Positions 37,664 through 55,750 of a DNA stretch of 64,000 nt are shown here, in pieces. Position 1 is the stretch's first letter. Each line of letters begins with the position of its first letter. The stretch covers positions 62,001 through 126,000 of the forward strand of contig NZ_FOYX01000001.1 of assembly GCF_900112245.1 (NCBI RefSeq). Reading direction: 5' to 3'. A program made the translations under genes and the position numbers. This stretch comes from Maribacter stanieri (lineage in GTDB: Bacteria > Bacteroidota > Bacteroidia > Flavobacteriales > Flavobacteriaceae). The notes beneath the pieces were generated by a model. The model had not been told where the DNA came from. It saw only the letters and a list, made by a program, of their open reading frames with translations, and did not search any database.

Positions 37664-37685
37664 GATATCTTTTCTATAGTTTATC

Positions 37686-38654: not shown

Positions 38655-38701
38655 TTTAACGAACTTAAAATTGTTTTAAAGGTAGATTTTATGTTAAAAA
38701 T

Positions 38702-38731
38702 TTGGATGTCTTACAAATATATGTATTTTTG
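38702..38731 (+). promoter_or_regulatory. Promoter of the PL6 lyase gene (TTG-N19-TAnnTTTG)
   Basis: TTG at 38702-38704, 19 bp spacer, TATTTTTG at 38724-38731: an exact match to the Bacteroidetes consensus. A possible minus-strand -7 box for the divergent isomerase gene (TATATTTG, 38721-38714) overlaps the spacer. Confidence 0.65.
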
Positions 38732-38753
38732 GTCAACCAAACTGGTTAACCAA
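38729..38753. promoter_or_regulatory. Tandem operator at the PL6 promoter (2 x TTGGnnAACCAA-type 12-mers)
   Basis: 12-mers at 38729 (TTGGTCAACCAA) and 38742 (CTGGTTAACCAA), start to start 13 bp. The first overlaps the 3' end of the -7 box by 3 nt. Identical arrangements stand before susC and gntR. Best candidate regulator is the GntR/FadR protein at 51716. Confidence 0.7.
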
Positions 38754-38768
38754 TATTATCAAATTCAA

Positions 38769-41090
38769 ATGAAAAATAAATTCTTATTCAAGGCATTTTT
38801 ATTGATCATGTTTATCTCAACAATTTCTTGGGTAAATAAAGATAAAAATGATGTCCTAGTTCATAATATCGCTGAATTTGACGAAGCAGTTTCTAGTGCA
38901 GAGCCTGGTACTGTAATTGTCTTGGCTAACGGAATATGGAATAATGTTCAGTTTAAATTTACAGGAGAAGGTACCAAAAATGCTCCAATTACAGTAAAGG
39001 CAGAAACACCGGGCAAAGTATTTATTGAAGGGATTTCTAATTTAGAAATTTCCGGAAATTATTTAATAGTTGACGGACTGTTTTTTAGAAATGGTCATAC
39101 CCCAACTGAAAATGTAATTGCGTTTAGAACAAGCGAAGAAAATGTAGCTAATTACTCTAGGGTAACTAATTGTGTAATTCTAGATTATAATCAGCAACAA
39201 CGAGACAAAGATGATCTCTGGGTTCAGTTTTATGGTACTCATAATACACTAGACCATTGTTATATTGCTGGTAAAACAAATGGTGGACCAACAGTTAGGG
39301 TAGATTTGAAAGGAAACCAAAGCATTAGAAATTATCATCAAATTGTTGATAATCATTTTGGACCAAGACCTAGAAAAGGTGGCGCTAGAGGAGAAACTAT
39401 TCAACTAGGAAGTAGCTTTACCTCTATGTCGCCAAGTAATACAACTATTGCCAATAATTTATTTGAAGAATGTAATGGGGAAGTTGAGATTATTTCTAGC
39501 AAGACAAATTTTAACGAAATTAGAAATAATGTATTCTATAAAAGTGAAGGTTCTGTTGTAACACGTCATGGTAATTATGCCGTTATAGATGGTAATTATT
39601 TTATTGGTGATGGAGAAAATAAAAATTATGGTGGAATTAGACTGGTAAACACAGGACACTGGGTTATAAATAATTACTTCTATAAAATTATTGGTGAAAA
39701 CTTTAGAAGTCCACTAGCTGTAATGAACGGAATTCCTAAATCACCATTAAACAGATATAATCAAGTTACAGATGTTGTGGTTGCCTATAATACGTATGTA
39801 GATTGTAAATCGCCATGGCAATTTGGAGTGGGTACAAACATTGAACAAAAAGATGTACTTCCAGAATCTGAAATACGCTCAGCCAGAGCTCTTAGAACAG
39901 AAGTTGCCAATAATATTATCTACAACAGCATAGGTGATGAACATATAATTATTGAACATGACAAAGCTGATGGAGTAAAATTCAAAAGTAATATTATTAA
40001 TAACCAAGAGATAAGTTTTGGGGATACAACAAGAATTAAAGCTAGTGAATTTCAATTGACAAAAGTTGGCGAGTATGTCTATCTACCTAAATTAACCAGT
40101 GAGTTTGATATTTACCAAGGTTTTGGTTTTAATACAATTACCAAAGATCTTTTTGGAAATTCTAGAGAAGACAAAAATTCAATTGGTGCTGTGGTTCAAG
40201 GTGAATTTAAGGACACTGATATTTTAAACAAAGCTAAATACGGAGCAAGTTGGTATTCTAATATTGTAAAAAATACATCTCCTAACATTATAGAAGTTTC
40301 CAAAACCAAAGGAGAATTAGCAGCCAAAATAGCTACTGCTAAAGCAGGAGATATTATCTCTTTAAAACCAGGGAAATACAAAGTATCAAAATCGATACTA
40401 ATCAACAAAACAATTACAATTCAATCTAAAGAAAACGAAAAAGCTGAAATCGTCTTTACCGGAGCAGATAACACTCCACTATTTGAATTAAACCCTTATG
40501 GAATTTTAAATCTTAAGAATGTATCACTTACCGGTAACGGTAAACAAAAAGCATTTTCTAACCTAAAAGAAAATATGTCTAACCAATACGGTTTAACCGT
40601 TACGGGTTGCGATATCAATAATTTCGATTATGTATTAAAAGCATACAAACAAACATTTGCCCAAGAAATCACTTTTAAAGATACTGCAATTGCCGATTGT
40701 GAAAACGGTATTGAATTGTCTGAAGAAACGAATGACAAAGGAGATTACAACGTAGAATACTTAACTATTCAAAACTGTACATTCACTAACGTTAACCAAA
40801 ATGTGATTGATTATTATAGGGGTGGCTATGATGAATCAACCATTGGAGGAAACTTATTGGTTACAAACTCTAGCTTTTCAAATTGCGGCTCTAAAGAAGA
40901 AAACGGAATTTTATTAAACACTAGAGGTATCGTAAATGTTGATATTTCAAACAATACTTTTAAAAACAATAATGTAAAATTAGTGGCATTACTATGGGGA
41001 GCAAAGAATAATTCACATGCTGATAATGTAATTACAAACTCAGGTCAGATTAAGGTTGAAGAAAATTTGAAGATGAAATTAATGTACTAA
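38769..41090 (+). CDS. PL6-family alginate lyase
   Basis: 773 aa from ATG 38769, which gives a signal peptide (KNKFLFKAFLLIMFISTISW); the longer frame from 38691 runs through the promoter. The protein is a right-handed parallel beta-helix. The catalytic pair is K245 and R266 (SKTNFNEIRNN and VVTRHGNYAV), 21 residues apart as in chondroitinase B and PL6 alginate lyases. A second beta-helix-like part follows (about 480-773), as in two-domain members. It cuts alginate by beta-elimination outside the cell or in the periplasm. First gene of the lyase operon with PL17 and kdgF. Confidence 0.88.
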   Translation: MKNKFLFKAFLLIMFISTISWVNKDKNDVLVHNIAEFDEAVSSAEPGTVIVLANGIWNNVQFKFTGEGTKNAPITVKAETPGKVFIEGISNLEISGNYLIVDGLFFRNGHTPTENVIAFRTSEENVANYSRVTNCVILDYNQQQRDKDDLWVQFYGTHNTLDHCYIAGKTNGGPTVRVDLKGNQSIRNYHQIVDNHFGPRPRKGGARGETIQLGSSFTSMSPSNTTIANNLFEECNGEVEIISSKTNFNEIRNNVFYKSEGSVVTRHGNYAVIDGNYFIGDGENKNYGGIRLVNTGHWVINNYFYKIIGENFRSPLAVMNGIPKSPLNRYNQVTDVVVAYNTYVDCKSPWQFGVGTNIEQKDVLPESEIRSARALRTEVANNIIYNSIGDEHIIIEHDKADGVKFKSNIINNQEISFGDTTRIKASEFQLTKVGEYVYLPKLTSEFDIYQGFGFNTITKDLFGNSREDKNSIGAVVQGEFKDTDILNKAKYGASWYSNIVKNTSPNIIEVSKTKGELAAKIATAKAGDIISLKPGKYKVSKSILINKTITIQSKENEKAEIVFTGADNTPLFELNPYGILNLKNVSLTGNGKQKAFSNLKENMSNQYGLTVTGCDINNFDYVLKAYKQTFAQEITFKDTAIADCENGIELSEETNDKGDYNVEYLTIQNCTFTNVNQNVIDYYRGGYDESTIGGNLLVTNSSFSNCGSKEENGILLNTRGIVNVDISNNTFKNNNVKLVALLWGAKNNSHADNVITNSGQIKVEENLKMKLMY

Positions 41091-41202
41091 TCCAAAAATA
41101 AAAACACTACCCTATAATTCATTTGTTTCAACCTTCTGCAATAAAATAATTTTCAGAAAAAGATACTATTTTCAAATGATTTTTGAATAGCAAAATAAAA
41201 GA

Positions 41203-43443
41203 ATGTATATAAAAAGAATCAACTGGGCGATAATAACTATCACATGTTTATTTATAAGCATTTGCCCTCTAATCATTCAAGCTCAAGAACATCCTAACCT
41301 TATTTTAACCAAGGCTGGGGTAGAAAAAATTAGAGCTCAATTAGGTAATGTTCCTCTATTTGATGCTTCACTTCAAAAACTAAAAGAAGAAGTAGATGCA
41401 GAAATGGCTCTAGGTATAGATACACCTATTCCAAAAGATTATTCTGGTGGCTACACACATGCACGTCATAAGCGTAACATGACAGTGATGCAACAAGCTG
41501 GTGTTCTATATCAAATATTGGACGATGAAAAATATGCGAAGTATGTAAAAGACATGTTAATGCAATATGAGGGTATGTATAAAACATTACCGCTGCATCC
41601 AAAAACAAGATCTTATGCTAGAGGTAAATTATTTTGGCAATGTTTAAATGATTCTAACTGGTTAGTTTACGTTAGCCAGGCTTACGATTGCATCTATAAT
41701 TACTTAAGCAAGGTCGAAAGAAAAAAATTAGAAAAGAATCTTTTTAAGCCATTTGCAGATCATATTTCGGTAGATAGTCCGCAATTTTATCAAAGAGTTC
41801 ACAATCACAGTACATGGGGCAATGCCGCAGTTGGTATGATTGGTTTGGTGATGAATGACAAAGAGTTAATTGACCGTGCGCTATATGGTATTAAAGGGGT
41901 GAATTTAGATAAAACCGCTAAAGATGACGATGGTGGTTTTTTGAATGAAGATGGAAAAGCAGGTTTCTTAGCGAATATAGAAGAGCCATTTTCTCCTGAT
42001 GGATATTATAATGAAGGTCCTTATTACCAACGTTATGCCATGTATCCTTTTTTAATTTTTGCTGAAGGATTACACAACGTAAAACCTGAATTAAAAATAT
42101 TTAAGTACAAAGATGGTGTCCTTTTAAAATCAATTAATGCACTCATTAATTTATCTGATGCCGATGGCGATTTCTTTCCACTAAACGACGGACAAAAAGG
42201 GATGTCATACTATAACGATGCTTTAGTTACAGCGGTAGATATTTCTTATTATTTCGGGAACCAAGACCCAGGCTTGTTAAGTATCGCTGAAAAACAAAAT
42301 AAGGTCTTATTAGACGATTCTGGCTTAGCAGTTGCGCTCGGAGTTAAAAATGGTGAAGCCAAACCATTCGATAAAAAATCAATTAACCTATCTGATGGAC
42401 CAGATGGTACCCAGGGTGGAGTTGGTATTTTACGTAGTGAAGATTTAGAGCTTGTTTTTAAATATGCTTCGCAAGGATCAAGTCATGGTCATTATGATAA
42501 GTTGTCCTATTCATTCTACGATAATGGAGATGAAGTACTACAAGATTACGGTTTAGCCCGTTTTGTAAATATTGAGCAAAAAGGTGGTGGTAACTATTTA
42601 AAGGAAAATAAAACTTGGGCAAAACAAACCATTGCCCATAACACACTAGTGCAGAATGAGAAGTCTCACTACCAAGGTAAATATGATATTGGAAGTAAGT
42701 ATCATCCAGATTTATATCTTTTTGATGTTTCAAATGCCGACATTCAATTATTAAGTGCAAAGGAAACAAATGCGTATCCGGGAACAGAAATGCATAGAAC
42801 TATGGCTATTATCAAAGACGAAAGTTTTGAAAAGCCATTCATGCTAGATATTCTTAAAGTCAAATCTGACAGCACAAATCAATACGATTTACCTTTTTAT
42901 TTCATGGGGCAAGTATTGAACACAAATTTTGAATATGAAGTTCCTAAAACGCTAGAACCTTTAGGAAAAGACAATGGATATCAACATTTATGGTCAGAAG
43001 GTTGTGCTAATACAACAGACGAAAACACCAAATTAAGTTGGTTAGAAAAAGGGAGATTCTACACCTTAACATCTGCAACTTTAAAAGATGATGAACTACG
43101 GTTTGTAAGAATAGGAGCTAACGACCCAGAATTTAATTTAAGAAGAGAAGCGGGCTTTATTATTCGTAGAAAGGATTCTAAAAACACGCTGTTTGTTTCG
43201 ACGATAGAAGCACATGGTAGTTATAGTCCAGTCTCAGAATCTGCCTTGAACTCTAAAAGCAACATTACAGATTTAAAAGTGATTTTAGATACAGTAGATT
43301 ATACAGCTATTTCAATTACTACCATAAATGGTAATAGTAAATTGCTTATTCTAGCAAATAATAATGCTTCTAAAGAAGCGAAACATATTTTGAAAATAAA
43401 CGATAAGGATTACACTTGGACAGGTTCTTATTATTACAATTAA
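41203..43443 (+). CDS. PL17-family oligoalginate lyase
   Basis: 746 aa. Signal peptide about residues 1-28 (CPLIIQAQ). N-terminal alpha-toroid with N201-H202 (RVHNHSTWGN), the same positions as in the characterised Alg17c-type enzyme, and tyrosines 268-275 (YYNEGPYY) that include the likely catalytic base/acid. C-terminal heparinase II/III-like beta-sandwich starts near GGVGILRSE with HGHYDKLSYSFYDNG. It releases unsaturated monouronate from alginate oligomers, the substrate of KdgF encoded next (23 nt downstream). Confidence 0.9.
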   Translation: MYIKRINWAIITITCLFISICPLIIQAQEHPNLILTKAGVEKIRAQLGNVPLFDASLQKLKEEVDAEMALGIDTPIPKDYSGGYTHARHKRNMTVMQQAGVLYQILDDEKYAKYVKDMLMQYEGMYKTLPLHPKTRSYARGKLFWQCLNDSNWLVYVSQAYDCIYNYLSKVERKKLEKNLFKPFADHISVDSPQFYQRVHNHSTWGNAAVGMIGLVMNDKELIDRALYGIKGVNLDKTAKDDDGGFLNEDGKAGFLANIEEPFSPDGYYNEGPYYQRYAMYPFLIFAEGLHNVKPELKIFKYKDGVLLKSINALINLSDADGDFFPLNDGQKGMSYYNDALVTAVDISYYFGNQDPGLLSIAEKQNKVLLDDSGLAVALGVKNGEAKPFDKKSINLSDGPDGTQGGVGILRSEDLELVFKYASQGSSHGHYDKLSYSFYDNGDEVLQDYGLARFVNIEQKGGGNYLKENKTWAKQTIAHNTLVQNEKSHYQGKYDIGSKYHPDLYLFDVSNADIQLLSAKETNAYPGTEMHRTMAIIKDESFEKPFMLDILKVKSDSTNQYDLPFYFMGQVLNTNFEYEVPKTLEPLGKDNGYQHLWSEGCANTTDENTKLSWLEKGRFYTLTSATLKDDELRFVRIGANDPEFNLRREAGFIIRRKDSKNTLFVSTIEAHGSYSPVSESALNSKSNITDLKVILDTVDYTAISITTINGNSKLLILANNNASKEAKHILKINDKDYTWTGSYYYN

Positions 43444-43466
43444 ACTAATATTAAAACAATAAAAAA

Positions 43467-43841
43467 ATGAAGCGATTTAGTGAAAAGTACGTCATTTCAA
43501 AAGATATGGAATGGGAAAAACTTGGAGGAGGTGTATCACGAAAGTTTTTAGGATACGATAATCAAATCATGATGGTGAAAGTAAAATTTGACAAAGGAGC
43601 ATTAGGTGCGCCACATCAACATTTTCATACTCAGGCTACTTATTGTGTTTCAGGTAAATTTGAATTTGAAATTGATGGGGTAAAGCAAATTGTAGAAGCA
43701 GGTGACGGAGTTTATATAGAACCTAATTTATTACATAGTGCCGTTTGCTTAGAAGAAGGTATGCTAATTGACACTTTTAGCCCTGTAAGAGAAGATTTCT
43801 TAAGCGGAGGTGCGGTATCTTATTTCGGAGATAAAGAATAG
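43467..43841 (+). CDS. kdgF: KdgF, unsaturated uronate ring-opening cupin
   Basis: 124 aa small cupin. Metal-site histidines in APHQHFHTQ (H50, H52, H54) with H90, and the active-site trio D102, F104 and R108 (DTFSPVR) matching the known KdgF pattern. It speeds conversion of 4,5-unsaturated monouronate into the linear keto form (DEH). It directly follows the lyase that makes this product. No signal peptide, so the last step is cytoplasmic even though PL17 has an export signal. Confidence 0.9.
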   Translation: MKRFSEKYVISKDMEWEKLGGGVSRKFLGYDNQIMMVKVKFDKGALGAPHQHFHTQATYCVSGKFEFEIDGVKQIVEAGDGVYIEPNLLHSAVCLEEGMLIDTFSPVREDFLSGGAVSYFGDKE

Positions 43842-43947
43842 ATAACCATCAATTATTATTATAATTTTAATGGTTGTATTTCAATTCGAAAATATTTTAT
43901 GAAGTAAATATTATTTTAATCACATTTTAAATGCTGAACCAAAGATT

Positions 43948-45198
43948 ATGACAACGGAAAATATATCCATTACAGGAAAATTTAAAAGGAGTCTTAAGAA
44001 TTTTGGTCCAGCATTTTTTATTATCGGCTATGTTGTAGGCACAGGTAGTGTAACCTCTATGGTAGTTTCTGGTGCTAAGTATGGGCTTAGCCTTTCATGG
44101 GCACTTCTACTCTCTTGCTTTTTCACATACTTCTTATTGGTGTCAATTAGTAAGTTGACCATCGTTTCTGGAGATACCCTAATGCTTAATTTTAAAAAAG
44201 CATTTGGAAAACCGCTCACCATTTTTATTATTACCGCATTACTGGTATCAATAGTTTCTTCATGCATAGGTGTTATGGGTGTTGTTGCCGAAGTAACTAT
44301 GGAATGGATTTCAGTAAAAACCTCCGTTTCATTTCTTAACAAACCTATTGTTTCTATCTTTTTCATCGCATTACTTATTGGTCTTTTTTGGACCGGTAAA
44401 CACGAAAATTTCATAAAGGCAATGAGTATTATGGTTGGCTTTATGGCACTGGCTTTTATCATTACTAGTTTTATGGTGGTACAGGAAGCTGGCACTTCTA
44501 TTTCCGAGTTCTTCCCAGAATTACCTAAAGGCGATAATAACGGATTAGTAATTGCCGGTATAGTAGGTACTACTATGGCCGGTGTTTGCTTAGCTTCTAG
44601 AAGTATTTTGGTTCAAGAACAAAACTGGGGCTTAAAAGATTTAAAGACAGAGAATAAAGATGCCATGTCCTCTATGGTAATGACATTTTTAATTAGTCTT
44701 GCCATAATGATCAGTGCAACTGGCACACTTTACTTTAAAGGTGCCCCTGTAGATGATGCTACTGATATGATGCATGCTTTAGGACCATGGGCAGGAGATT
44801 TTGCTCTTACCCTATTTACCTTGGGAATTATTGGCGCAGGATTATCATCAATCTTCCCCAACCTATTATTATTCCCTTGGCTGATCGCAGACTATACAGA
44901 CACTGAGCGCGATATGAAAAAACCACTATATAAGGGTATAGTAGTTTTAGTAGCACTATCTGGTTTAATCGTTCCTATTTTAGGAGGAAAACCAGTTTGG
45001 ATCCTAATAGCCTCTCAAGCATTGAGTCCGTTCGTAATGCCTTTAATTACACTCTTTCTTCTTATCCTTCTAAACAAAGAGAGCATTATGAAAGAACATA
45101 AAATAGGTCTTTGGATGAACCTGGCTTTAGGTGCTACTTTTATATTCAACTGCTATATGCTATACGTTGCCTTAAACGGATTTATTGATTTTATCTAA
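43948..45198 (+). CDS. Nramp-fold transporter lacking the metal-binding motifs
   Basis: 416 aa with about 11 helices. Alignment by eye to Nramp: helix 1 FGPAFFIIGYVVGTGSVTS corresponds to GPGFL...DPGN, but DPGN is GTGS (residues 31-34). Helix 6 GTTMAGVCLASRSILVQ corresponds to GATVMPHNLYLHSSLVQ, but the metal-coordinating MPH is AGV. So the scaffold is Nramp and the classical divalent-metal site is gone. Its place between kdgF and manA in an alginate locus points to a different substrate, perhaps a sugar acid or another ion. Convergent with manA, only 2 nt between stops. Confidence 0.75.
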   Translation: MTTENISITGKFKRSLKNFGPAFFIIGYVVGTGSVTSMVVSGAKYGLSLSWALLLSCFFTYFLLVSISKLTIVSGDTLMLNFKKAFGKPLTIFIITALLVSIVSSCIGVMGVVAEVTMEWISVKTSVSFLNKPIVSIFFIALLIGLFWTGKHENFIKAMSIMVGFMALAFIITSFMVVQEAGTSISEFFPELPKGDNNGLVIAGIVGTTMAGVCLASRSILVQEQNWGLKDLKTENKDAMSSMVMTFLISLAIMISATGTLYFKGAPVDDATDMMHALGPWAGDFALTLFTLGIIGAGLSSIFPNLLLFPWLIADYTDTERDMKKPLYKGIVVLVALSGLIVPILGGKPVWILIASQALSPFVMPLITLFLLILLNKESIMKEHKIGLWMNLALGATFIFNCYMLYVALNGFIDFI

Positions 45199-45200
45199 TC

Positions 45201-46316
45201 TTACTTAGGAGGATAACAAAGTAATATCTTCGATTCAATTTTGGAGGTAAAAACAACCTCATCTATTGCAGCAGAGAAGAATATTTCATCACCTTGAGAA
45301 AAACTATATTCTTTTCCCCCACATGTAATGCTACCCTCACCAAAATAAATTACCGCAACAAAAAAGCTACCATTGGCTTTGATTGAATGTTCTCCGTTCA
45401 GATCCAATTCGCTTAAACCAAAACAATCTGTGTGCGTCTCATTAAATATGGTATTTAGGGTATGGGTATCAGAAGAATCTATTGTTTTTGGAGATACCTT
45501 CCATCTTTTCAAGGCTTCCTCGTAAGAACAGCCATCATAATGAAAACAGTCTAACATATTTTGCTCCCCTACTCCCTGATGTATCAGTTCATCGGAGATT
45601 TCTAGACCTGCAGGTGTAATCTTTTCCACACGCATGGTATAATCCGTAGGTTCTTGAACTTCCATTAAAAAACAACCACTACCAATAGCATGCGGCACAC
45701 CACCATAAATCATATACGCATCACCAGGGTTTACTTCTATTTTATGTAAGCACCCCAACATACCTTCAATATCTTGATTTACAAATAGGGTTTCCCATTG
45801 TTCTTTTGTAACTCCTTCCTTAAAGCCCATGTAAATGACACTTTTTTCGCCATTTACCTCGCGCTTGTTCAATACATACCAAGATTCAGTTTTACCGAAA
45901 GCCGAGTTAAGCATAGTGCGGGCATAATTTTTATCTGGATGTACTTGAATGGTTAATCGCTCTTTAGAATCAAGCATTTTAATGAGCACACCAGTAGTGC
46001 CAAATTTATCAGCTAAAGCTTTTCCTAAGTATAATTCTTTGTTAGAAGCCACTAATTCTTTTAACGAATGTGTGCCCGACGGTGTTTCAACCAAAGACAA
46101 CCCTTCATTCTCAGGTCTTCCATTTCCTCGAGCCGTAACGGTAGACATAATCCACTCTTCTGGCATACTACCATCCACTTCTGGAGTCACTTGTTTCCAC
46201 TTATCTATTAATGCGCCACCTTCATAAGTACGCCAAACCCTATTAGAATATTGTTTTAATGGTATAGATGCGTATTGCTCAAAATTGTTCTTCATAATAC
46301 AATGCTTATTGTTCAA
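45201..46316 (-). CDS. manA: Mannose-6-phosphate isomerase, class I
   Basis: 371 aa. Zinc-site residues in LTIQVHPDK and ESWYVL, and GGVPHAIGSG in the second cupin half. A second in-frame Met at 46295 (MKNNFEQ) is a possible start. It interconverts mannose-6-P and fructose-6-P. It is transcribed toward the Nramp-like gene and away from susC; the common 613-bp gap to susC holds the tandem operator, so co-regulation is possible. In an alginate locus it could feed GDP-mannose or take in mannose; the direct link to mannuronate is not known. Confidence 0.85.
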   Translation of the reverse strand: MNNKHCIMKNNFEQYASIPLKQYSNRVWRTYEGGALIDKWKQVTPEVDGSMPEEWIMSTVTARGNGRPENEGLSLVETPSGTHSLKELVASNKELYLGKALADKFGTTGVLIKMLDSKERLTIQVHPDKNYARTMLNSAFGKTESWYVLNKREVNGEKSVIYMGFKEGVTKEQWETLFVNQDIEGMLGCLHKIEVNPGDAYMIYGGVPHAIGSGCFLMEVQEPTDYTMRVEKITPAGLEISDELIHQGVGEQNMLDCFHYDGCSYEEALKRWKVSPKTIDSSDTHTLNTIFNETHTDCFGLSELDLNGEHSIKANGSFFVAVIYFGEGSITCGGKEYSFSQGDEIFFSAAIDEVVFTSKIESKILLCYPPK

Positions 46317-46929
46317 TAAAATTATCAGAACCCAATGAATATCAAAAGTTTGAATTCATTGAATACTATCTATTCTTAAAAAATAATTGAAAAATTAGAG
46401 AGGAAAACCATTCAAATTTAGTGATTTTACGACTAAAACCCCCTCCAAATAAGAGCATATTTGAGAAAATTAAAAAAGCCTTATTTGTTAACAAACTGCT
46501 ATATCCTCAATAATTTATAGGGTTAAAAGAATATTTCAAAAATTATAGCGACTCTAAAGTTGTTAAAATGCAAATTTCTCTTTTTTTAACGATTAAATAA
46601 CATATATTTGGTAAACCAAATTGGATAACCAGTTTGGAAAACCAAAAATGAGTCATCATTCCTTAAATTAAAATCGAACTTAAATTTCACTTAAACTCAA
46701 TGACAAAAAAATCAGATTAACACATTTACAACATTACTTCTCATTTAAATGGAGAAGATTAATTACAACATGTATTATTTGCTGTTCATGTTTTTTCCTT
46801 AAGCAAGAGTTTAACAACTTGAAAAGAACATAACAGATGTAAAAATGAAGTTTTACTCAAAGTTTCATTTTAGAATGCTTTAATCAGACTTTAATAAGTC
46901 GAACTTAAATTAACATAACAAGACTACAA
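46317..46929. promoter_or_regulatory. Regulatory gap between manA and susC with long susC leader
   Basis: No ORF. TATATTTG at 46603-46610 fits the -7 box; no TTG stands 19 bp upstream. If it is the promoter, the susC leader is about 310 nt. A hairpin (AAAATGAA 46842-46849 with TTCATTTT 46864-46871) lies 60 nt before the start codon. No known riboswitch was recognised. Confidence 0.5.
46608..46645. promoter_or_regulatory. Triple tandem operator before susC (3 x TTGGnnAACCAA-type 12-mers)
   Basis: 12-mers at 46608 (TTGGTAAACCAA), 46621 (TTGGATAACCAG) and 46634 (TTGGAAAACCAA), each start 13 bp after the last. The first overlaps the end of the -7 box by 3 nt, as at the PL6 and gntR promoters. 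Confidence 0.75.
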
Positions 46930-49900
46930 ATGAATTTAAAAACGAAATTAGTATTAATGATGGTATTGTTACTCAACATATCATTATTCGCACAAGACGG
47001 CTACACCTTAACTGGTACGGTACTGGACGAAACAAATATGCCCGTTCCAGGAGCTAACGTTGTTATCCAAAACACAACTACAGGAACTTCTACCGATTTT
47101 GACGGTAATTTTTCAATTACAGTTTCTAACGGTGATGTTTTAGAATTTTCTTCTATTGGTTATGCCAAAAAGGAAGTAGCCGTTACCGGTCAACAAACTT
47201 TAAACGTTGTTCTTGCTGAAGACGCTAGTCAACTTGAAGAAGTTGTTGTTGTAGGTTACGGTTCTCAGAAAAAGAGTGACATTACCGGTTCTGTCTCTTC
47301 AGTAAAATCTGAAGAATTGAACGCATATCCTGTGTTAGATGCTGCTCAAGCTCTACAAGGTCGTGCAGCGGGTGTTGTAGTACAATCCAACAACGGTGGT
47401 GAACCAGGCGCTCCAATCAGTATAAAAATTAGAGGTAATACCTCTATTAATGCAAGTAGCTCTCCGCTTGTTGTTGTAGATGGTTTTGTAGGTGCTTCTA
47501 TGCCACAGGCTAATGATATTGAGTCAATGGAAGTTTTAAAAGATGCATCGGCGACTGCTATATACGGATCAAGAGGTTCAAATGGTGTTATACTTGTAAC
47601 TACTAAAAAAGGTAGAAGCGGAAAATTATCAATTGAAGCTAACACCACTTACGCAATTCAAAATATATCTAACAGATTAGATTTGTTGAATGCTAGTGAA
47701 TTTGCCGATTATCAAAATCAAATTAGAACTAATAATGGTGTTTCTACGCCATATGCTCAAGGACCTGCTAATACTGACTGGCAAGATTTAATCTATAGAT
47801 CAGGTAGCACATCTAATAACCAAGTATCATTTTCAGGTGGTAGCGAGAAAATTAATTTTTATGCTTCTGCCAACTACTTTAAACAAGATGGTATTATAAT
47901 CGGTTCTGATTTTGAAAGATTAACTTTCTTATCTAACATCGACGCTCAAGTAACAGATAAATTAAAGTTAGGAATGAACCTTTTTGGAAGTAGAGGCATT
48001 AAAAATGGTTCTGCAACACAATCAAACGGTTCAGTTTCTGCTGGTGGAGATGACGTAATTACTTTAGCTTTAAGATATGCACCTGATCAACCAGTTTATA
48101 ATGCAGATGGAACTTATACATTTGGTAATACTGTAGGTGACCCTGTTGACAACCCATTTGCTGTTGCAACAGAAAGAATCGATGAAACAAAAACTGATAA
48201 TTTCAGAGCTAATTTATATGCTAATTATGAAATCTTAGAAGGTCTTAGTTTTAAAACTACTTTTGGTTTAAGTACAGAAAATCAAACTAGAGGTATCTTC
48301 TTACCATCATTATTAACCCAGACTGCAGGTGGGGAAAGCGGAAGAGCAATAGTAGATACTAATAGAGAAACAAGTGTTTTAAGTGAAAACTATTTGACTT
48401 ACACTAAAGAATTCGGTAAAAGTAACTTAACCTTATTAGGAGGGTACTCTTACCAAAAAACCGTTAATGAAAACTTTTTCTCTGAAGCTACCGGTTTCAT
48501 CTCAGATGGTTTTTCTTACTATGGTTTAGGTTCCGCAACGAATATCTTACAACCAAGTTCTTCAAAATCAGATGTAGAAATTCAATCTCAATTTGGTAGA
48601 TTTAATTATGACTTCGATGATAAATATTTATTGACCGCAACGATAAGAAGAGATGGTGCATCAAACTTTTCGGCTAATGAAAAGTATGCTCTTTTCCCTT
48701 CTGCAGCTTTAGGTTGGAAAGTTTCTAATGAAAACTTTCTTAAAGACAGCAAGGCTATTTCTAATTTGAAATTTAGAGCTAGTTACGGTGTTACTGGTAA
48801 CCCTTCAATTGGTGCTTACGAATCTTTATCAAGACTTGAGACGCTTTATGCTTCAAGCAACGGACAAACTGTTAGTGCTGTAACTCCAGAACAACCTGAA
48901 AATCCTAATTTGAAATGGGAATCTTCATACCAAACAAACTTTGGTATTGATTTGGGTCTTATTAACAATAGGGTATCTGTATCCTTGGATTACTACAACA
49001 TAGATACTAAAGATTTGATTTTAACGGATAACAGTATCACAGAATATTTAGGTTTCTCAGGTGATGATATTTTAGCCAATGTTGGGGAAATAAACAACAG
49101 AGGTCTTGAAATTGCTTTAAGTACAAAAAACATTCTTAAAGAAGATTTTAGATGGACAACCGATTTCAATATTGCATTCAATAAAAATGAAGTAGTTAGC
49201 TTAGTTAATGATGCAGATTTGTTTTTCGATGCTACGCCAAGTTATTTTAGTCATGACAGAAGTTATGTTTTAAGAGTTGGTGAAGAAGTTGGTCTTTTCT
49301 GGGGTTATGAATATGCTGGTGTTTATCAAGGCGGTACAGCTCCTGCAGGTACACAAACCTTATCAGGTGGCGTAGCAGGTGATCCATTATTCGCAGATAT
49401 TGATGGAAGTGGTGATATTACAGAAGCAGATAGAACAACGATAGGTAATCCTAATCCTGATTTTACATGGGGCTTCACTAATAACTTTAGCTACAAAAAT
49501 TTAGATTTAAGTATATTTCTTCAAGGTTCTCAAGGCGGAGATATCTTTAACTTGACCAATGTTCAGTTAACGAATGGAGATGCAAATACTACTAGAGCTT
49601 ACTATAATAGTGCATGGACTCCAACAAATACAGACACAAACGCTCCGCGTGTTGGTAACAACAGTAACAGAGAAATTTCTTCTCGTTTTATAGAAGATGG
49701 TAGTTATGTTAGACTTAAGAATATTTCTTTAGGTTACACAGTACCTTCTGATATTACAGAAAAATTAGGTCTTGATAACCTTAGATTATCTTTAAGTGGC
49801 CAAAACCTATTAACCTTTACAAACTATTCTGGCTTAGATCCTGAAGTAAGTTACTATGGTTCTGGTGGCAACAATAACACTTCATCTAATACCGCTCAAG

Positions 49901-49965
49901 GTTTTGACTTTGGTAACTACCCAACGGTAAGAACTGTTACTATGAGCCTTAATTTAAAGTTTTAA
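46930..49965 (+). CDS. SusC-like TonB-dependent transporter (alginate oligosaccharides)
   Basis: 1011 aa. Signal peptide about 1-21 (NISLFAQ), carboxypeptidase-regulatory-like domain (25-100, TLTGTVLDETNMPVPGANV), SusC signature VVVGYGSQKKSDITGSVSSV near residues 105-124, plug with LQGRAAGVVVQSNNGGEPG and the barrel ending SLNLKF. It imports oligosaccharides bound by SusD using TonB energy. The susD gene follows 26 nt later. The substrate is inferred from the lyase, KdgF, KdgK and DEH reductase genes around it. Confidence 0.92.
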   Translation: MNLKTKLVLMMVLLLNISLFAQDGYTLTGTVLDETNMPVPGANVVIQNTTTGTSTDFDGNFSITVSNGDVLEFSSIGYAKKEVAVTGQQTLNVVLAEDASQLEEVVVVGYGSQKKSDITGSVSSVKSEELNAYPVLDAAQALQGRAAGVVVQSNNGGEPGAPISIKIRGNTSINASSSPLVVVDGFVGASMPQANDIESMEVLKDASATAIYGSRGSNGVILVTTKKGRSGKLSIEANTTYAIQNISNRLDLLNASEFADYQNQIRTNNGVSTPYAQGPANTDWQDLIYRSGSTSNNQVSFSGGSEKINFYASANYFKQDGIIIGSDFERLTFLSNIDAQVTDKLKLGMNLFGSRGIKNGSATQSNGSVSAGGDDVITLALRYAPDQPVYNADGTYTFGNTVGDPVDNPFAVATERIDETKTDNFRANLYANYEILEGLSFKTTFGLSTENQTRGIFLPSLLTQTAGGESGRAIVDTNRETSVLSENYLTYTKEFGKSNLTLLGGYSYQKTVNENFFSEATGFISDGFSYYGLGSATNILQPSSSKSDVEIQSQFGRFNYDFDDKYLLTATIRRDGASNFSANEKYALFPSAALGWKVSNENFLKDSKAISNLKFRASYGVTGNPSIGAYESLSRLETLYASSNGQTVSAVTPEQPENPNLKWESSYQTNFGIDLGLINNRVSVSLDYYNIDTKDLILTDNSITEYLGFSGDDILANVGEINNRGLEIALSTKNILKEDFRWTTDFNIAFNKNEVVSLVNDADLFFDATPSYFSHDRSYVLRVGEEVGLFWGYEYAGVYQGGTAPAGTQTLSGGVAGDPLFADIDGSGDITEADRTTIGNPNPDFTWGFTNNFSYKNLDLSIFLQGSQGGDIFNLTNVQLTNGDANTTRAYYNSAWTPTNTDTNAPRVGNNSNREISSRFIEDGSYVRLKNISLGYTVPSDITEKLGLDNLRLSLSGQNLLTFTNYSGLDPEVSYYGSGGNNNTSSNTAQGFDFGNYPTVRTVTMSLNLKF

Positions 49966-49991
49966 TAAAGAATTAATTTAAAATAAGAAAA

Positions 49992-51521
49992 ATGAAAATA
50001 TATAAATTATTACTGTTATTGGTAGGGTTATCAATAATGGGCTGTTCAGATTTAGAAGAAGAGCCTGTAGGTATATTGTCTGCTGAAGGTTTCTTTGAAA
50101 CTCCTGCAAATATACAAACAGCGGTAGATGGTTCTTTAACTCATGCTATCAACGAGAAGTTTTGGGGTAGAAAATTGTCAATTGCGTTAATGTTACGTTC
50201 AGACATGGTTAGTCTTGCTTCTAATGAAACAAGAAGGGTTGAAATGAACGAGTTTACTACTCTTGCCAGCAATGGTATGATCAGTGAATTTTGGCCAAGA
50301 ACCTATCAAGGTATTGCTGCTGCGAACGCTGCAATTGCTGGGGCTGAAGATGTAGATGTAGATGATTCCATAAAAAATCCTATAACAGCTCAAGCTTATT
50401 TTGCAAGAGCGTTCTACTATTTTCATTTAGTACGCCTTTTTGGAGATGTTCCTTATATCGATGCTCCAGTAACTGATTTTGATGCCGCTACCTCTATAAG
50501 TAGAACTCCAGCTGCAGAAGTATATGAAAATATAATTTCAGATTTAGAGTATGCAAAAACGTGGTTACCAGCAACGGTAACTTCAAGAGCTACACCTTCG
50601 AAAGCGGCAGCTAGTTCTTATCTAGCTTTAGTTTATTTGACATTAGAACAATGGCAAAACTCTTTTGACGAAGCTCAAGAAGTTATTGATAATGCAGGAA
50701 CTTATAATTTAGCATTAGAGTCCAACTTTCAAAACCTATTTAATGCCGATGTAATAGATGCATCTCTTGAACCGATTTTTGCATTAGACTACAATAATTT
50801 CGAAGCTGATGATAATGCTTATGACCAAACAGCTCCTATGACCGGTATCAGAGGAGACGATAGAAACTTAGGAGGAGGATGGTCTGTAGCCGTACCAACT
50901 TTAGAAGTTTATACAACATGGGATGCAGGAGATTACAGAAGAGCTGTTAGTATGGACGACGAAGTATCTATTGGAGGTACAGTTGTTGACTACACTCAAT
51001 TTGACATCAGTGGTCACGAATTTGCCAAGAACAACCCTTACGTTGCAAAATACACGCGTTTTCCTGGACCATTTGCTCGTGCAAACGCTAGAGCAACTAG
51101 CCATAACTATTCTATGATCCGTTATGCAGAAGTATTATTGATTGCAGCGGAAGCAGCAGTAGAACTAGGAGACAACGCAACTGCCCTTAACTATATCAAC
51201 CAGGTTAGAGCAAGAGCTAGAATGGGTGGAGAAACTCAAACTGGGGCAGGTGTTCCTGTAACTTTTGAACCAAGTGCAGTTCCTGCGGACCTTACAGGAA
51301 CCGTTACAATTGACGACATCTTAGAAGAAAGAAGATTAGAGTTTGCTTTTGAAGGAATAAGATGGTACGATATTGCTAGAAGAAAAATAGGAAACGAAGT
51401 ATTTGGAGCATCTGGATTAGAAGGTGAAAAGCCATTTTTCTCTGAAGATGATTATTTACTTCCATTACCTGAAGACGAATTAGAAAGAAACCCTAACCTT
51501 ACACAGAACCCAGGGTACTAA
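49992..51521 (+). CDS. SusD-like surface glycan-binding lipoprotein
   Basis: 509 aa. Lipobox at Cys18 (LSIMGC), then the SusD/RagB fold: early part AEGFFETPANIQTAVDGSL, TPR-like helices FARAFYYFHLVRLFGDVPYI, and the C-terminal segment RRLEFAFEGIRWYDIARR, all typical. It sits on the SusC barrel as a lid and binds alginate fragments. A strong terminator follows at 51568-51604, separating it from gntR. Confidence 0.92.
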   Translation: MKIYKLLLLLVGLSIMGCSDLEEEPVGILSAEGFFETPANIQTAVDGSLTHAINEKFWGRKLSIALMLRSDMVSLASNETRRVEMNEFTTLASNGMISEFWPRTYQGIAAANAAIAGAEDVDVDDSIKNPITAQAYFARAFYYFHLVRLFGDVPYIDAPVTDFDAATSISRTPAAEVYENIISDLEYAKTWLPATVTSRATPSKAAASSYLALVYLTLEQWQNSFDEAQEVIDNAGTYNLALESNFQNLFNADVIDASLEPIFALDYNNFEADDNAYDQTAPMTGIRGDDRNLGGGWSVAVPTLEVYTTWDAGDYRRAVSMDDEVSIGGTVVDYTQFDISGHEFAKNNPYVAKYTRFPGPFARANARATSHNYSMIRYAEVLLIAAEAAVELGDNATALNYINQVRARARMGGETQTGAGVPVTFEPSAVPADLTGTVTIDDILEERRLEFAFEGIRWYDIARRKIGNEVFGASGLEGEKPFFSEDDYLLPLPEDELERNPNLTQNPGY

Positions 51522-51567
51522 ATAATATATAAGTTAATTAAAAGAGAGTTGTTTGAGTTAGTTGTTA

Positions 51568-51604
51568 AGATTGCTGGCTTGTTAAGCGAGCCAGCAAATC
51601 TTTT
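51568..51604 (+). terminator. Rho-independent terminator after susD
   Basis: Arms AAGATTGCTGGCTTG and CGAGCCAGCAAATCTT with a short TTAAG loop followed by T's. One bulged A in the right arm. Confidence 0.8.
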
Positions 51605-51659
51605 AGAATAAGTATCTAACATTAAGTACTTGAAATAATTAATAACGAGGTTATTTTTA

Positions 51660-51667
51660 TAAATTTG
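51660..51667 (+). promoter_or_regulatory. Putative -7 box of gntR (TAAATTTG)
   Basis: Fits TAnnTTTG; 49 nt before the gntR ATG. It stands 5 nt before the first operator 12-mer, the same offset as at the PL6 and susC promoters. No TTG at 19 bp. Confidence 0.5.
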
Positions 51668-51689
51668 AAAAACCAATCTGGTTAACCAA
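51665..51689. promoter_or_regulatory. Tandem operator before gntR (autoregulation)
   Basis: 12-mers at 51665 (TTGAAAAACCAA, one arm degenerate) and 51678 (CTGGTTAACCAA), start to start 13 bp. The second is identical to the second PL6 site. Suggests the GntR protein controls its own gene. Confidence 0.65.
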
Positions 51690-51715: not shown

Positions 51716-52417
51716 ATGAAGCTACAAATCCTTACTAAATCCGAACATAAAGATCTTCATAATGATATTATCGCTAAAATTCGAGATTTAATCAATAACA
51801 AAAATCTTGAGCCTGGAGATAAATTACCTTCAGAGCGTATGTTATCAGAACGATTTAATGTAAGTAGAGGAAATGTACGCGAATCAATTCAGAAATTAGA
51901 ATTCTACGGAATCCTAAAATCTAAACCACAAAGTGGAACATTCGTAGCGGACATTGGTCAAGTAGCAATGAACGGTATGATGGATGATATTCTTGGACTA
52001 GAAGACCCAGATTTTAAATCATTGGTGGAAACAAGAATCTTATTAGAACTAAAAACAGTACGACTAGCTGCACAAAGAAGAACAGATGCAGATTTAGTAA
52101 AAATGGAAGCGGCATTAGATGCTTACAAAGAAAAGGTATTGAATAATGAAGATGCTGTTCAAGAAGATTTACTTTTTCATTTAGCAATTGCCCAAGCTTG
52201 TAGAAATAGTACTATCAATAGAATGATGCTAATTATTACACCAGAGATCATAAACAATTTTGAAAAATATCATGTTTGTGACAAGGATCAAAGCTTAAAA
52301 GGAATAAAAGAGCATCAAGATATTTTTGACGCTATAAAAAGACAAAATACACAGGAAGCAAAACAGATGATGAAAGTACATTTCAATGCTCTTTATCAAT
52401 ATTGTTACAATATATAA
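51716..52417 (+). CDS. GntR/FadR-family regulator (FCD domain), probable controller of the alginate locus
   Basis: 233 aa. Winged helix at residues about 12-78 (LEPGDKLPSERMLSERFNVSRGNVRESIQKLEFYG in two parts), then an all-helical FCD ligand domain (90-230) with FHLAIAQACRN. FCD regulators often sense sugar acids such as KDG or uronates and lose DNA binding on ligand. Its FadR class commonly binds short palindromes, consistent with TTGGnnAACCAA sites at its own, susC and PL6 promoters. Ligand and sign of control are inferred. Confidence 0.88.
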   Translation: MKLQILTKSEHKDLHNDIIAKIRDLINNKNLEPGDKLPSERMLSERFNVSRGNVRESIQKLEFYGILKSKPQSGTFVADIGQVAMNGMMDDILGLEDPDFKSLVETRILLELKTVRLAAQRRTDADLVKMEAALDAYKEKVLNNEDAVQEDLLFHLAIAQACRNSTINRMMLIITPEIINNFEKYHVCDKDQSLKGIKEHQDIFDAIKRQNTQEAKQMMKVHFNALYQYCYNI

Positions 52418-52473: not shown

Positions 52474-53751
52474 ATGAAAGTTAAAGGTTTAAGATGGTGG
52501 ATTATCACATTGATTTGCTTGGCTACAGTAATCAATTATATCGATAGAACAGCTTTCGGTGTCATGTGGCCAGAAATGGGCAAAGATTTGGGTATGGACG
52601 AATCTGACTACGGAATAATGCTTAGTATTTTTATGGGCACCTACGCCATAGGTAAATTTCTTTCAGGTAAACTTTATGACATTATTGGTACAAGAATGGG
52701 GTTCGTTGTATCAATTGTTGTTTGGTCAGTAGCATCTGTATTTCATGCTTTTGCTAGAGGACTTATTTCACTTACTTTATTTAGAGCCCTTTTAGGTTTA
52801 GGTGAGGCAGGTAATTGGCCGGGAGCCGTAAAAAGTAATGGAGAATGGTTTCCTGTAAAACAACGTGCAATAGCTCAAGGTATATTTAATGCAGGAGCAT
52901 CTTTAGGTAGTGTAATAGCTCCACTATTAATTGCTTTCCTTTATGGGCATTTTGGATGGCGAATGACATTTATAATCATTGGTTTAGTAGGTTTAATATG
53001 GGTAATTCCATGGTTGTTCATTAATAAATCTAAACCAGGAAAACACCCTTGGATTACAGAGGAAGAGCTAAAATTTATTAATAGCGATAGAATTGTAGAT
53101 TTAGATAAAGATGATGATGAAAAGGGACTATCTGTTGGTCAAATATTAAGTTATAAAGAATCTTGGGGTGTATTAGCATCTAGATTTTTTATAGAACCTA
53201 TATGGTGGCTATTTGTAGGTTGGATGCCACTTTACTTGAATTCTGAATTCGGCTTTAGCGTTGAAGAAATAGGATCGACCATTTGGATTTCTTATTTAGG
53301 TGGAATGGCTGGTAGTATTATTGGAGGTTGGTACAGTGGAAAATTAATGGAAACCAAATCTGTAGATGCCGCTAGAAAAATTACTATAACTATTGGCGGT
53401 GTCTTAATATTCCTAGGTCTACTCGGAATCATTTTCTTAGTTAATGAAAATAACCCAATGACATTTATTTATATAGTTGCTGTTGTTCTTTTTGGCTTTC
53501 AATTTGCCATTGGTAACATACAAACTATATCAAGTGACCTCTTTAGAGGCCCATCTGTAGGAACCCTTGCAGGTTTAGCAGGCACGGTTGCCGCTGTATC
53601 GGTAATCATTATGAACTCTTTAATTCCAATGATTGCGCAGGTATCGTACACTCCGGCATTTATTGTAATAGCAGTATTAGCCCCAATGGCTGTGCTGTCC
53701 ATTTATGTATTGATTAAAAAAATTAGACCAGTAGAAGTTGAATCAGAATAA
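52474..53751 (+). CDS. MFS transporter, hexuronate/DEH type (anion:cation symporter)
   Basis: 425 aa, 12 helices. N-terminus RWWIITLICLATVINYIDRTAFGVMWPEM is typical of ExuT-like hexuronate carriers, with the helix 4 pattern LFRALLGLGEAGNWPGAVK also characteristic of that family. It should carry unsaturated uronate or DEH from the periplasm into the cytoplasm. It follows gntR by 56 nt and precedes the SDR gene by 13 nt, one operon. Confidence 0.85.
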   Translation: MKVKGLRWWIITLICLATVINYIDRTAFGVMWPEMGKDLGMDESDYGIMLSIFMGTYAIGKFLSGKLYDIIGTRMGFVVSIVVWSVASVFHAFARGLISLTLFRALLGLGEAGNWPGAVKSNGEWFPVKQRAIAQGIFNAGASLGSVIAPLLIAFLYGHFGWRMTFIIIGLVGLIWVIPWLFINKSKPGKHPWITEEELKFINSDRIVDLDKDDDEKGLSVGQILSYKESWGVLASRFFIEPIWWLFVGWMPLYLNSEFGFSVEEIGSTIWISYLGGMAGSIIGGWYSGKLMETKSVDAARKITITIGGVLIFLGLLGIIFLVNENNPMTFIYIVAVVLFGFQFAIGNIQTISSDLFRGPSVGTLAGLAGTVAAVSVIIMNSLIPMIAQVSYTPAFIVIAVLAPMAVLSIYVLIKKIRPVEVESE

Positions 53752-53764: not shown

Positions 53765-54526
53765 ATGAGTACAGAAGGAAAAGTAGCAGTAATTACAGGA
53801 GCAACTGGAGGAATCGGTTTTGAAGTTGCTAAAAGATTAGGACAAGACGGTTTTACAGTTATCTTAAATGGTATAGATGACGAAGCTGGCGCCAAAAGAG
53901 TAAAAGAATTGACCGCAGAAGGTATTACTGCAGAATATTTAGGTTTTGACGTTACTAATGAAGAAGCTGTAACCAAAAACATCAAAGCAATTGGTGATAA
54001 ATACGGTAAAATTGATACGCTAGTGAACAATGCTGGTGGATTAGGAGGTAGATCAAGATTCGAAGAGATGACTACTGAATTTTACAGATCGGTAATGGCA
54101 TTAAACCTTGATTCTACATTCTTTGCATCAAGAGCAGCGATCCCTTACCTTAAAAAAGGTGAACACCCATCTATAATCAATTATACATCTAATGCAGCAT
54201 GGACCGCAGGTGGACCAGGTGCAGGTATATATGGTACATCTAAAGCAGGTGTTAATGCTATAACTAGAGCTTTAGCTAAAGATCTTGCAGAATATGGTAT
54301 TAGAGTTAATGCAGTATCTCCTGGTACAATTGATACTCCATTCCATGCACAGATTAAAGCTACTAAACCAGAAGTTTTCGCTTCTTGGGCAAATAACATT
54401 ATGTTAGGTAGATTAGGACAACCTAGTGATGTTGCTGGTGTTGTTTCTTTTCTTGCAGGTAAAGATGCTGCTTTCATTACAGCAGAAACTATCCAAATTG
54501 GTGGTGGTCAAGCTTTAGGAATCTAG
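53765..54526 (+). CDS. SDR-family reductase, probable DEH reductase
   Basis: 253 aa classical short-chain dehydrogenase. Cofactor motif TGATGGIG (11-18), NNAGG (88-92) and the catalytic triad S142, Y156, K160 (YTSN and YGTSK). In the alginate pathway such an enzyme reduces 4-deoxy-L-erythro-5-hexoseulose uronate to 2-keto-3-deoxygluconate, which KdgK then phosphorylates. The specific assignment rests on its neighbours. Ends in a bidirectional terminator shared with lacI. Confidence 0.82.
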   Translation: MSTEGKVAVITGATGGIGFEVAKRLGQDGFTVILNGIDDEAGAKRVKELTAEGITAEYLGFDVTNEEAVTKNIKAIGDKYGKIDTLVNNAGGLGGRSRFEEMTTEFYRSVMALNLDSTFFASRAAIPYLKKGEHPSIINYTSNAAWTAGGPGAGIYGTSKAGVNAITRALAKDLAEYGIRVNAVSPGTIDTPFHAQIKATKPEVFASWANNIMLGRLGQPSDVAGVVSFLAGKDAAFITAETIQIGGGQALGI

Positions 54527-54549: not shown

Positions 54550-54586
54550 AAAAAAGCGTTATTGTAATTACAATAACGCTTTTTTT
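54550..54586. terminator. Bidirectional terminator between the SDR gene and lacI
   Basis: Long palindrome AAAAAAGCGTTATTGTAA and its complement, A-run left, T-run right; it runs up to the lacI stop codon. Confidence 0.88.
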
Positions 54587-55601: not shown

Positions 55602-55617
55602 CTTCTTTATATATATT

Positions 55618-55714: not shown

Positions 55715-55750
55715 AGCAATAAATTATTACATATTTAACTAATAGTCAAC

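What the first reader, a model, noticed from the sequence alone, without database searches (positions are those of the whole stretch)
38702..51689. One promoter-operator design at three alginate promoters: tandem 12-mers on a 13-bp period overlapping the -7 box
Seen: TTGGnnAACCAA-type 12-mers start at 38729 and 38742; 46608, 46621 and 46634; 51665 and 51678. Every step is exactly 13 bp. In all three promoters the TAnnTTTG box starts exactly 5 nt before the first 12-mer (38724, 46603, 51660). Inference: a GntR/FadR dimer array starting at the -7 box, repressing PL6, SusCD and its own gene. A 13-bp phase is not a whole helical turn, so neighbouring dimers would sit on different faces, which is unusual.
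Basis: partly seen in the sequence, partly recalled or inferred. Interest (0 to 1): 0.75.

Follow-up and report, generated by a model that had tools for sequence, protein, structure and literature searches.

The report
Alginate repressor's phased operators inside promoters
A marine seaweed-degrading bacterium most likely keeps its alginate-eating genes off with copies of a short repressor-binding site, spaced exactly 13 letters apart and overlapping the promoter; the layout recurs in related bacteria and most likely belongs to an already described repressor, AusR.

Summary
The 4.46-Mb genome holds one further array, at a second alginate locus with a second copy of the regulator, plus a single operator before an SDR gene. 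In the window, L036 and 79 regulator loci of Flavobacteriaceae, 100 of 100 boxed first units have a second 12-mer at exactly +13 and none at 8-12 or 14-24. TAnnTTTG begins 5 nt before the first 12-mer in 103 of 107 arrays and at none of 16 other offsets. Of 100 relatives, 30 have arrays and a close regulator homologue, 1 arrays only, 0 regulator only. Best reading: operators of the FadR-type GntR repressor AusR, blocking RNA polymerase from -7 to about +31. AusR is published for Zobellia, with single, double or triple operator copies (quoted in a review). I could not read that paper, so the 13-bp phase and promoter register may already be in print. Dimers on different DNA faces have a precedent in NanR. 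Binding was not tested.

The parts
38701..38704 (+). -33 element TTTG of the PL6 promoter, exactly 19 bp before the -7 box
   Evidence: sequence; across arrays TTT(T/G) is commonest at this offset, 58 of 107, but 51 of 107 one base nearer
38724..38731 (+). -7 box TATTTTTG; predicted transcription start about 38736
   Evidence: box placed at -12 to -5 in F. psychrophilum (PMC9723704, passage)
38729..38740 (+). operator unit 1, TTGGTCAACCAA
38742..38753 (+). operator unit 2, CTGGTTAACCAA
38769..41090 (+). PL6 / chondroitinase-B-family lyase; the start at 38691 given by the ORF list lies upstream of the promoter, the in-frame ATG at 38769 is likelier
   Evidence: Pfam PF14592
41203..43443 (+). 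PL17-type oligoalginate lyase (heparinase II/III-like plus alginate lyase domain; the name PL17 is inferred)
   Evidence: Pfam
43467..43841 (+). cupin protein, KdgF-like (the name is inferred)
   Evidence: Pfam Cupin_2
43948..45198 (+). Nramp-like transporter
   Evidence: Pfam PF01566
46603..46610 (+). -7 box TATATTTG of the SusCD promoter; predicted start about 46615; T-run at 46581-46587 in the -33 place
46608..46619 (+). operator unit 1, TTGGTAAACCAA
46621..46632 (+). operator unit 2, TTGGATAACCAG
46634..46645 (+). operator unit 3, TTGGAAAACCAA
46930..49965 (+). SusC-like TonB-dependent receptor
   Evidence: Pfam
49992..51521 (+). SusD-like protein
   Evidence: Pfam
51660..51667 (+). -7 box TAAATTTG of the regulator's own promoter; predicted start about 51672; no clear -33 element
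51665..51676 (+). operator unit 1, TTGAAAAACCAA (3 mismatches to the ideal palindrome, the most in the window arrays)
51678..51689 (+). operator unit 2, CTGGTTAACCAA
51716..52417 (+). AusR-type repressor: GntR winged helix (16-77) plus FCD domain (103-224)
   Evidence: Pfam; model with winged helix, linker helix and helical bundle
52474..53751 (+). MFS transporter, probably cotranscribed with the regulator
   Evidence: Pfam; 56-bp gap after the regulator gene
53765..54526 (+). short-chain dehydrogenase, probably cotranscribed
   Evidence: Pfam; 13-bp gap

Best explanation
The 12-mers are operators of the FadR-type GntR protein encoded at 51716-52417, an AusR homologue. One dimer binds each imperfect palindrome (ideal TTGGTTAACCAA, GT-N2-AC spacing). 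Unit 1 contains the TTG of the -7 box TAnnTTTG, so it would cover about -7 to +5; units 2 and 3 would cover +7 to +18 and +20 to +31. Bound protein would deny sigma and RNA polymerase the -7 box and the start region. The fixed 13-bp pitch lets neighbouring dimers bind side by side, about 86 degrees round the helix, and probably help each other. An alginate breakdown product, probably an unsaturated uronate or KDG-like acid bound in the FCD pocket, would release the repressor and switch on PL6, SusCD, the second PUL, the SDR gene and the repressor itself. Shown here: motif, phase, register, polarity, conservation, co-occurrence, downstream genes. Inferred: binding, one dimer per unit, cooperativity, occlusion, effector.
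For: Own genome: 4 arrays, 0 control. Among 100 genomes: arrays plus a regulator homologue of 63-100% identity in 30, arrays only in 1 (G008, 85% complete), such a regulator only in 0, neither in 69 (my cross-reading; 19 further genomes have only weaker GntR matches and count as lacking it). Spacing in 79 loci, 1.52 Mb, scored on the eight outer letters: 151 pairs at 13, 58 at 26, 6 at 39, 12 at 1 (overlapping readings), 29 in all at every other distance from 2 to 80; control motif none at 13, 26 or 39. Without seeding on the step: of 100 boxed first units, 100 have a 12-mer with at most 2 outer mismatches at +13, 51 at +26, 0 at 8-12 and 14-24. TAnnTTTG at -5 in 103 of 107 arrays and at 0 of the other 16 offsets tested; 82 of 85 after removing identical sequences. 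Linker base A or T in 176 of 176. Downstream, among 124 arrays that carry TAnnT: SusC 69, AusR 20, PL6 13, PL17 6, MFS 2, Nramp 1, SusD-like fragment 1, unlabelled 12. Recognition-helix R51 and R55 and FCD D151, H155, H200, H222 are invariant in the 34 homologues that I aligned, the window's and 33 of the 79 loci. Single operators in the same register before 17 of 20 SDR orthologues. Reviews quoting AusR (passages); FadR-subfamily palindromes TKGT/ACMA with a 2- or 3-nt centre (PMC4494728, passages).
Against: No binding, footprint or start-site data. The Zobellia paper could not be read and Zobellia AusR is not in my set, so orthology to it is inferred from family, gene neighbourhood and reviews. 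The 79 loci were fetched with the regulator as bait, so they are enriched for this system, and many are close relatives. 4 of 107 arrays lack TAnnTTTG at -5; bare TAnnT also occurs at -3 in 75 of 107, a by-product of TATAT followed by TT. The -33 element is blurred: exact TTTG in 12 of 107 at N19 and 10 of 107 at N18. In the regulator's own promoter in the window unit 1 is poor (TTGA) and no -33 element is evident. Palindromes are unequal: right half AAC kept in 234 of 264 units, left GTT in 69 of 264, which a simple symmetric dimer site does not predict. The protein lacks the long N-terminal extension that NanR uses for cooperativity (GntR domain starts at residue 16). No array was found in 3 of 79 loci even on a looser look (L080, L105, L110).
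Confidence: 0.86

Rival explanations
1. NanR-like reading: the protein recognises the conserved right half AACCA as polar direct repeats every 13 bp, each dimer binding asymmetrically with one arm on the strong half and the other on a poor one.
For: Right half more conserved than left at the inner letters; polarity follows the promoter in 109 of 124 arrays, level in 8, opposite in 7; NanR dimers bind repeats asymmetrically (PMC8012715, passages).
Against: The outer left half is also well kept (position 2 T 269 of 269, position 3 G 265 of 269, position 4 G 244 of 269; units were chosen with at most one outer mismatch, so this is partly by construction; without a condition on unit 2, positions 2 and 3 are T and G in 100 of 100). 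The lone site before the SDR gene is the perfect palindrome in 16 of 17 cases.
Confidence: 0.25
2. The dimer sits across unit junctions, on CCAA-W-TTGG, and the 12-mer is not the binding unit.
For: The junction is also palindromic, its linker is A or T in 176 of 176, and 100 of 100 boxed units in the bait loci have a second unit.
Against: Operators with no second unit exist: in L176 and L177 a perfect 12-mer is followed by no TTGG; the family consensus has GT before AC, as inside the 12-mer.
Confidence: 0.05
3. The repeats act in the mRNA as small hairpins (UUGG-loop-CCAA) in the 5' leader.
For: Units 2 and 3 probably lie downstream of the start; TTGG and CCAA can pair; in unit 2 the outermost pair is C-G instead of T-A in 9 of 100.
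Against: At the same pair the mismatch C-A is commoner (31 of 100), and A-C mismatches occur at pair 4-9 (11 of 100); no both-sided change at pairs 2-11, 3-10 or 4-9. Unit 1 overlaps the promoter itself. A protein-binding palindrome would also allow the symmetric C-G form. My first count could not have seen changes on both sides of an outer pair, because of how units were chosen.
Confidence: 0.04
4. The 12-mers belong to the neighbouring LacI-type regulator (54585-55601, -).
For: Its 20-mer shares the edges TTGGTTAA/TTAACCAA and also abuts a -7 box.
Against: The two separate: G019 has the LacI 20-mer but neither arrays nor a close GntR homologue, while G002, G023, G027, G032, G036 and G037 have arrays and no exact match to that 20-mer pattern.
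Confidence: 0.04

Closest known systems
AusR regulon of Zobellia galactanivorans (Dudek et al. 2020, NAR 48:7786; not held, seen only through passages of PMC7874173, PMC8286568 and PMC8073546)
   Same: GntR-family repressor inside an alginate PUL; single, double or triple operator copies at the promoters; binding stopped by alginate breakdown products; AusR duplication also reported in Zobellia
   Different: Other genus (Maribacter, inferred from the nearest named locus, 97% identity); here the 13-bp phase, the -7 register and the polarity are measured across relatives; whether the paper gives them is unknown to me
E. coli NanR on (GGTATA)3
   Same: FadR-subfamily protein; up to three dimers on tandem repeats, facing different sides of the helix (PMC8012715, passages)
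   Different: NanR repeats are direct and less than half a turn apart, and cooperativity needs an N-terminal extension; here near-palindromes on a 13-bp pitch and no long extension
FadR-subfamily palindromes with extra half-boxes 7-12 nt from the centre (Suvorova 2015, PMC4494728, passages and section 17)
   Same: TKGT/ACMA consensus; the next unit's left half lies 9 nt from each centre, inside that range
   Different: Here the additional box is extended into full repeated operators

Membership tests
FadR subfamily of GntR regulators | N-terminal GntR winged helix plus all-helical C-terminal domain | tested here: met
   Pfam GntR 1.4e-18 and FCD 1.7e-26; model shows winged helix, linker helix and six or seven C-terminal helices, mean pLDDT 75, pTM 0.60, wing poorly defined
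FadR subfamily of GntR regulators | palindromic operator with GT and AC 2-3 nt apart | tested here: met
   TTGGT-TA-ACCAA type, GT-N2-AC; consensus as in PMC4494728. That this protein binds it is not shown
AusR (alginate PUL repressor) | GntR repressor gene in an alginate PUL with SusCD and lyases | tested here: met
AusR (alginate PUL repressor) | single, double or triple operator copies at alginate promoters | tested here: met
   1 (SDR), 2 (PL6, regulator), 3 (SusC, SusC2); as DNA motifs only
AusR (alginate PUL repressor) | sequence orthology to Zobellia AusR | not tested
AusR (alginate PUL repressor) | binds the operator and is released by alginate products | not testable with these tools
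   needs protein
NanR-type cooperative repressor | long N-terminal extension that mediates cooperativity | tested here: not met
   GntR domain begins at residue 16; so it may work like NanR but is not filed as one

The most novel reading that the evidence does not exclude
Flavobacteria build repressible promoters by making the TTTG of the -7 box the first letters of the operator. The AusR arrays are a polar, quarter-turn-phased version (13 bp, about 86 degrees per step) on which one to four dimers wind round the DNA from -7 downstream, and a LacI-type regulator in the same window uses the same fusion with one 20-bp operator serving two divergent promoters. The fused -7 box/operator would be a general design of the group, arising in unrelated repressor families.
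Probability: 0.3. Interest if true: 0.6.

Novelty: new member of a known kind. Interest (0 to 1): 0.45.

Why it matters
It gives a precise, testable operator rule (12-mer, 13-bp pitch, A/T linker, first unit fused to TAnnTTTG, copy number by promoter class) for predicting alginate regulons in Flavobacteriaceae, adds a second PUL and an SDR gene to the predicted regulon, and poses a clean structural question: how FadR-type dimers pack a quarter turn apart without NanR's extension.

Tried and rejected
RNA hairpins: disfavoured, not excluded (the first count was blind to both-sided changes at outer pairs, so I repeated it without a condition on unit 2). LacI ownership of the arrays: rejected by separate occurrence. 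Junction-binding register: disfavoured. A larger set of single-site regulon members: the boxed single pattern gives 9 hits in the genome (5 of them not at arrays) against 4 for its control, so only the SDR site, present in all 6 genomes of that call, was kept; L150, a site before a 276-aa ORF, in 3 of 6, was set aside. The variable-gap search also gave 4 control hits (one each in G005, G023, G031, G062) and 7 matches at steps other than 13 or 26; these were not examined.

Papers: the listings showed me no paper on operator phase or -7 overlap, and one search found none; I saw listings only. AusR together with alginate and GntR, or with Zobellia, is in the same 3 papers; of those I saw passages and section 7 of PMC8073546. 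PMC8012715 and PMC9723704: passages. PMC4494728: passages and section 17.

Rows dropped: 1 of 108 arrays lay inside an ORF (L109) and was left out and the array part of 78; 5 of 129 readings were the same array read on the other strand and were dropped; required TAnnT upstream, so the box count comes only, which did not. Searches also include L126-L145, so some genomes may count twice. Two of the 20 arrays labelled AusR there lie 370 and 615 bp from that gene and may serve another one. Arrays were seeded on the 13-bp step, so the spacing evidence is. 7 of 79 loci showed no array at the threshold; 4 of these (L089, L097, L101, L123) hold a boxed unit followed at 13 bp by CTGGTTAACCAG, just below it. 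The list of matches was cut short; I used its per-genome tallies.
Full report
What is there. The seven 12-mers, their 13-bp steps and the three TAnnTTTG boxes were read directly. Three units match TTGGnnAACCAA fully, four differ by one outer letter. The genes downstream are a PL6 lyase with a PL17-type lyase, a cupin and an Nramp-like transporter; SusC and SusD; and a GntR/FCD regulator followed by MFS and SDR genes.

Chance. The tandem pattern occurs in the whole 4.46-Mb genome only at these three places and at C8:14090-14127 (three units); the pattern read backwards gives none. In 100 genomes, own included, 31 have arrays and no control hit appears. The single 12-mer is not in excess of chance: tandem phase and position make the signal.

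The extra sites. The C8 array precedes a second SusC/SusD pair, a PKD protein, a 480-aa protein without Pfam match, two PL7 (Alginate_lyase2) genes, a second regulator 76% identical to the first, and an Nramp-like gene. A single operator with its box, TATATTTGGTTAACCAA, lies before an SDR gene on C7. Of 62 genomes searched, 20 have a close orthologue of that SDR (E at most 1e-90); all 20 are among the 25 array-bearing genomes of that set. 17 of the 20 keep the boxed operator; the three without it are L192, L193 and L194. L193 and L194 lie near arrays on the same contigs, and L192 is near a second, 50%-identical regulator homologue. Among its solved relatives is chain 3afm, called carbonyl reductase; that this is the alginate DEH reductase of Sphingomonas A1 is recalled, not shown.

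Phase. In 79 loci from Flavobacteriaceae fetched with the regulator as bait, I scored the eight outer letters symmetrically, allowing one mismatch. Distances between hits: 13 (151), 26 (58), 39 (6), 1 (12, overlapping readings), and 29 in all for every other distance from 2 to 80. A control motif of the same letters back to front gave 490 hits and none at 13, 26 or 39. A second count that starts from boxed first units and asks nothing of what follows found, in 100 of 100, a 12-mer with at most two outer mismatches at +13; none at 8-12 or 14-24; 51 at +26 and 1 to 3 at 25 and 27-29 (the window, L036 and the 79 loci). A search allowing unit starts 10 to 40 bp apart in 60 genomes returned steps of 13 or 26 except for 7 matches, with 4 hits for its control.

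Register. In 107 arrays outside ORFs, TAnnTTTG begins at -5 in 103 and at none of the 16 other offsets tested; after removing identical sequences 82 of 85. Bare TAnnT also occurs at -3 in 75 of 107, which follows from TATAT before TT. TTT(T/G) is commonest at -28, N19 before the box (58 of 107; 51 at -27); exact TTTG is there in 12 and 10 of 107, so the -33 element is blurred. With the box at -12 to -5 as mapped in F. psychrophilum (PMC9723704, passage), unit 1 covers -7 to +5, unit 2 +7 to +18, unit 3 +20 to +31. In 20 stretches fetched from further genomes, 23 of 23 arrays have TAnnTTTG at -5 on at least one strand, most of them on the minus strand; 2 have it on both. In 5 arrays of the whole set TAnnT occurs on both strands.

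Anatomy of the unit. The right half AAC is kept in 234 of 264 units, the left GTT in 69 of 264; linkers are A or T in 176 of 176. Polarity follows the promoter in 109 of 124 arrays, is level in 8 and reversed in 7. Copy number goes with promoter class: SusC arrays have three or four units in 53 of 69; PL6, PL17, MFS, Nramp and regulator arrays have two in 40 of 42 (strict units only). The lone SDR operator is a perfect palindrome in 16 of 17, while array units average 1.0 to 2.75 mismatches by class. I infer that weak units are made up for by number.

The protein. Regulator and arrays go together: of 100 genomes 30 have both, 1 arrays only (85% complete), 0 regulator only, 69 neither (homologues at 63% identity or more counted, 19 genomes with only weaker GntR matches counted as lacking it). 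Genomes of one genus are not independent, but the array-bearing genomes belong to 9 of 50 genera. Recognition-helix arginines R51 and R55 and FCD residues D151, H155, H200, H222 are invariant in the 34 homologues aligned; that these four are metal ligands is recalled. The paralogue keeps the same two arginines, so both repressors probably read the same operators. Solved relatives include PdhR and NanR.

Mechanism. Most likely one dimer per 12-mer blocks the -7 box and start region, with help between neighbours set 13 bp (about 86 degrees at 10.5 bp per turn) apart. The effector is inferred from reviews: alginate breakdown products stop AusR binding (passages).

What is known. AusR of Zobellia galactanivorans is a published GntR repressor of alginate genes, and PMC7874173 says it binds single, double or triple operator copies. 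That paper itself is not held. I therefore file this as a new member of a known kind, and claim no priority for the 13-bp pitch or the -7 register.

A wider pattern. The LacI-type gene and the divergent pfkB-family sugar kinase gene in the same window share a 20-mer whose ends also abut TAnnT, on both strands at 55617; the second copy at 55696 has it on neither. The doubly boxed form recurs in the 11 regulator loci L047-L057 of Maribacter and, symmetrically, in L064, L101 and L118. Two unrelated repressors thus seem to use an operator that begins with the TTTG of the -7 box. Whether this is general was not tested.

Check of this report. Recounting against the calls led to one new computation, a weaker statement against RNA hairpins (its odds moved from 0.03 to 0.04), and disclosure of the blurred -33 element, the -3 TAnnT count and the control hits.

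Noticed in passing
window 55617-55636 and 55696-55715: Two copies, in opposite orientation, of a 20-bp LacI-type operator TTG.TTAATCGATTAA.CAA between a LacI-family gene (54585-55601, -) and a pfkB-family sugar kinase gene (55751, +). At the first copy TAnnT abuts the operator on both strands, so one operator carries parts of two overlapping divergent -7 boxes; recurs in other Maribacter loci.
   Followed up: partly
L036 and L196 (contig C8 of the same genome): Second alginate PUL: SusC2, SusD2, PKD protein, a 480-aa protein without Pfam match, two PL7 lyases, second AusR-type regulator (76% identical) and an Nramp-like transporter, with a three-unit array.
   Followed up: yes
L131 3722-4099 (-): A 125-aa ORF with only the winged-helix part of an AusR homologue, behind a two-unit array and ahead of MFS, SDR and kinase genes; either a decayed copy or a ligand-blind DNA binder.
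   Followed up: partly
L156 645-1415 (-): SDR gene with a single boxed operator; close orthologues were found only in array-bearing genomes among the 62 searched; candidate DEH reductase.
   Followed up: yes
window 36947-38654 (-): RraA-like and xylose-isomerase-like genes run away from the PL6 promoter; the PL6 array lies about 74 bp before their start, but no TAnnT abuts it on that strand.
   Followed up: no
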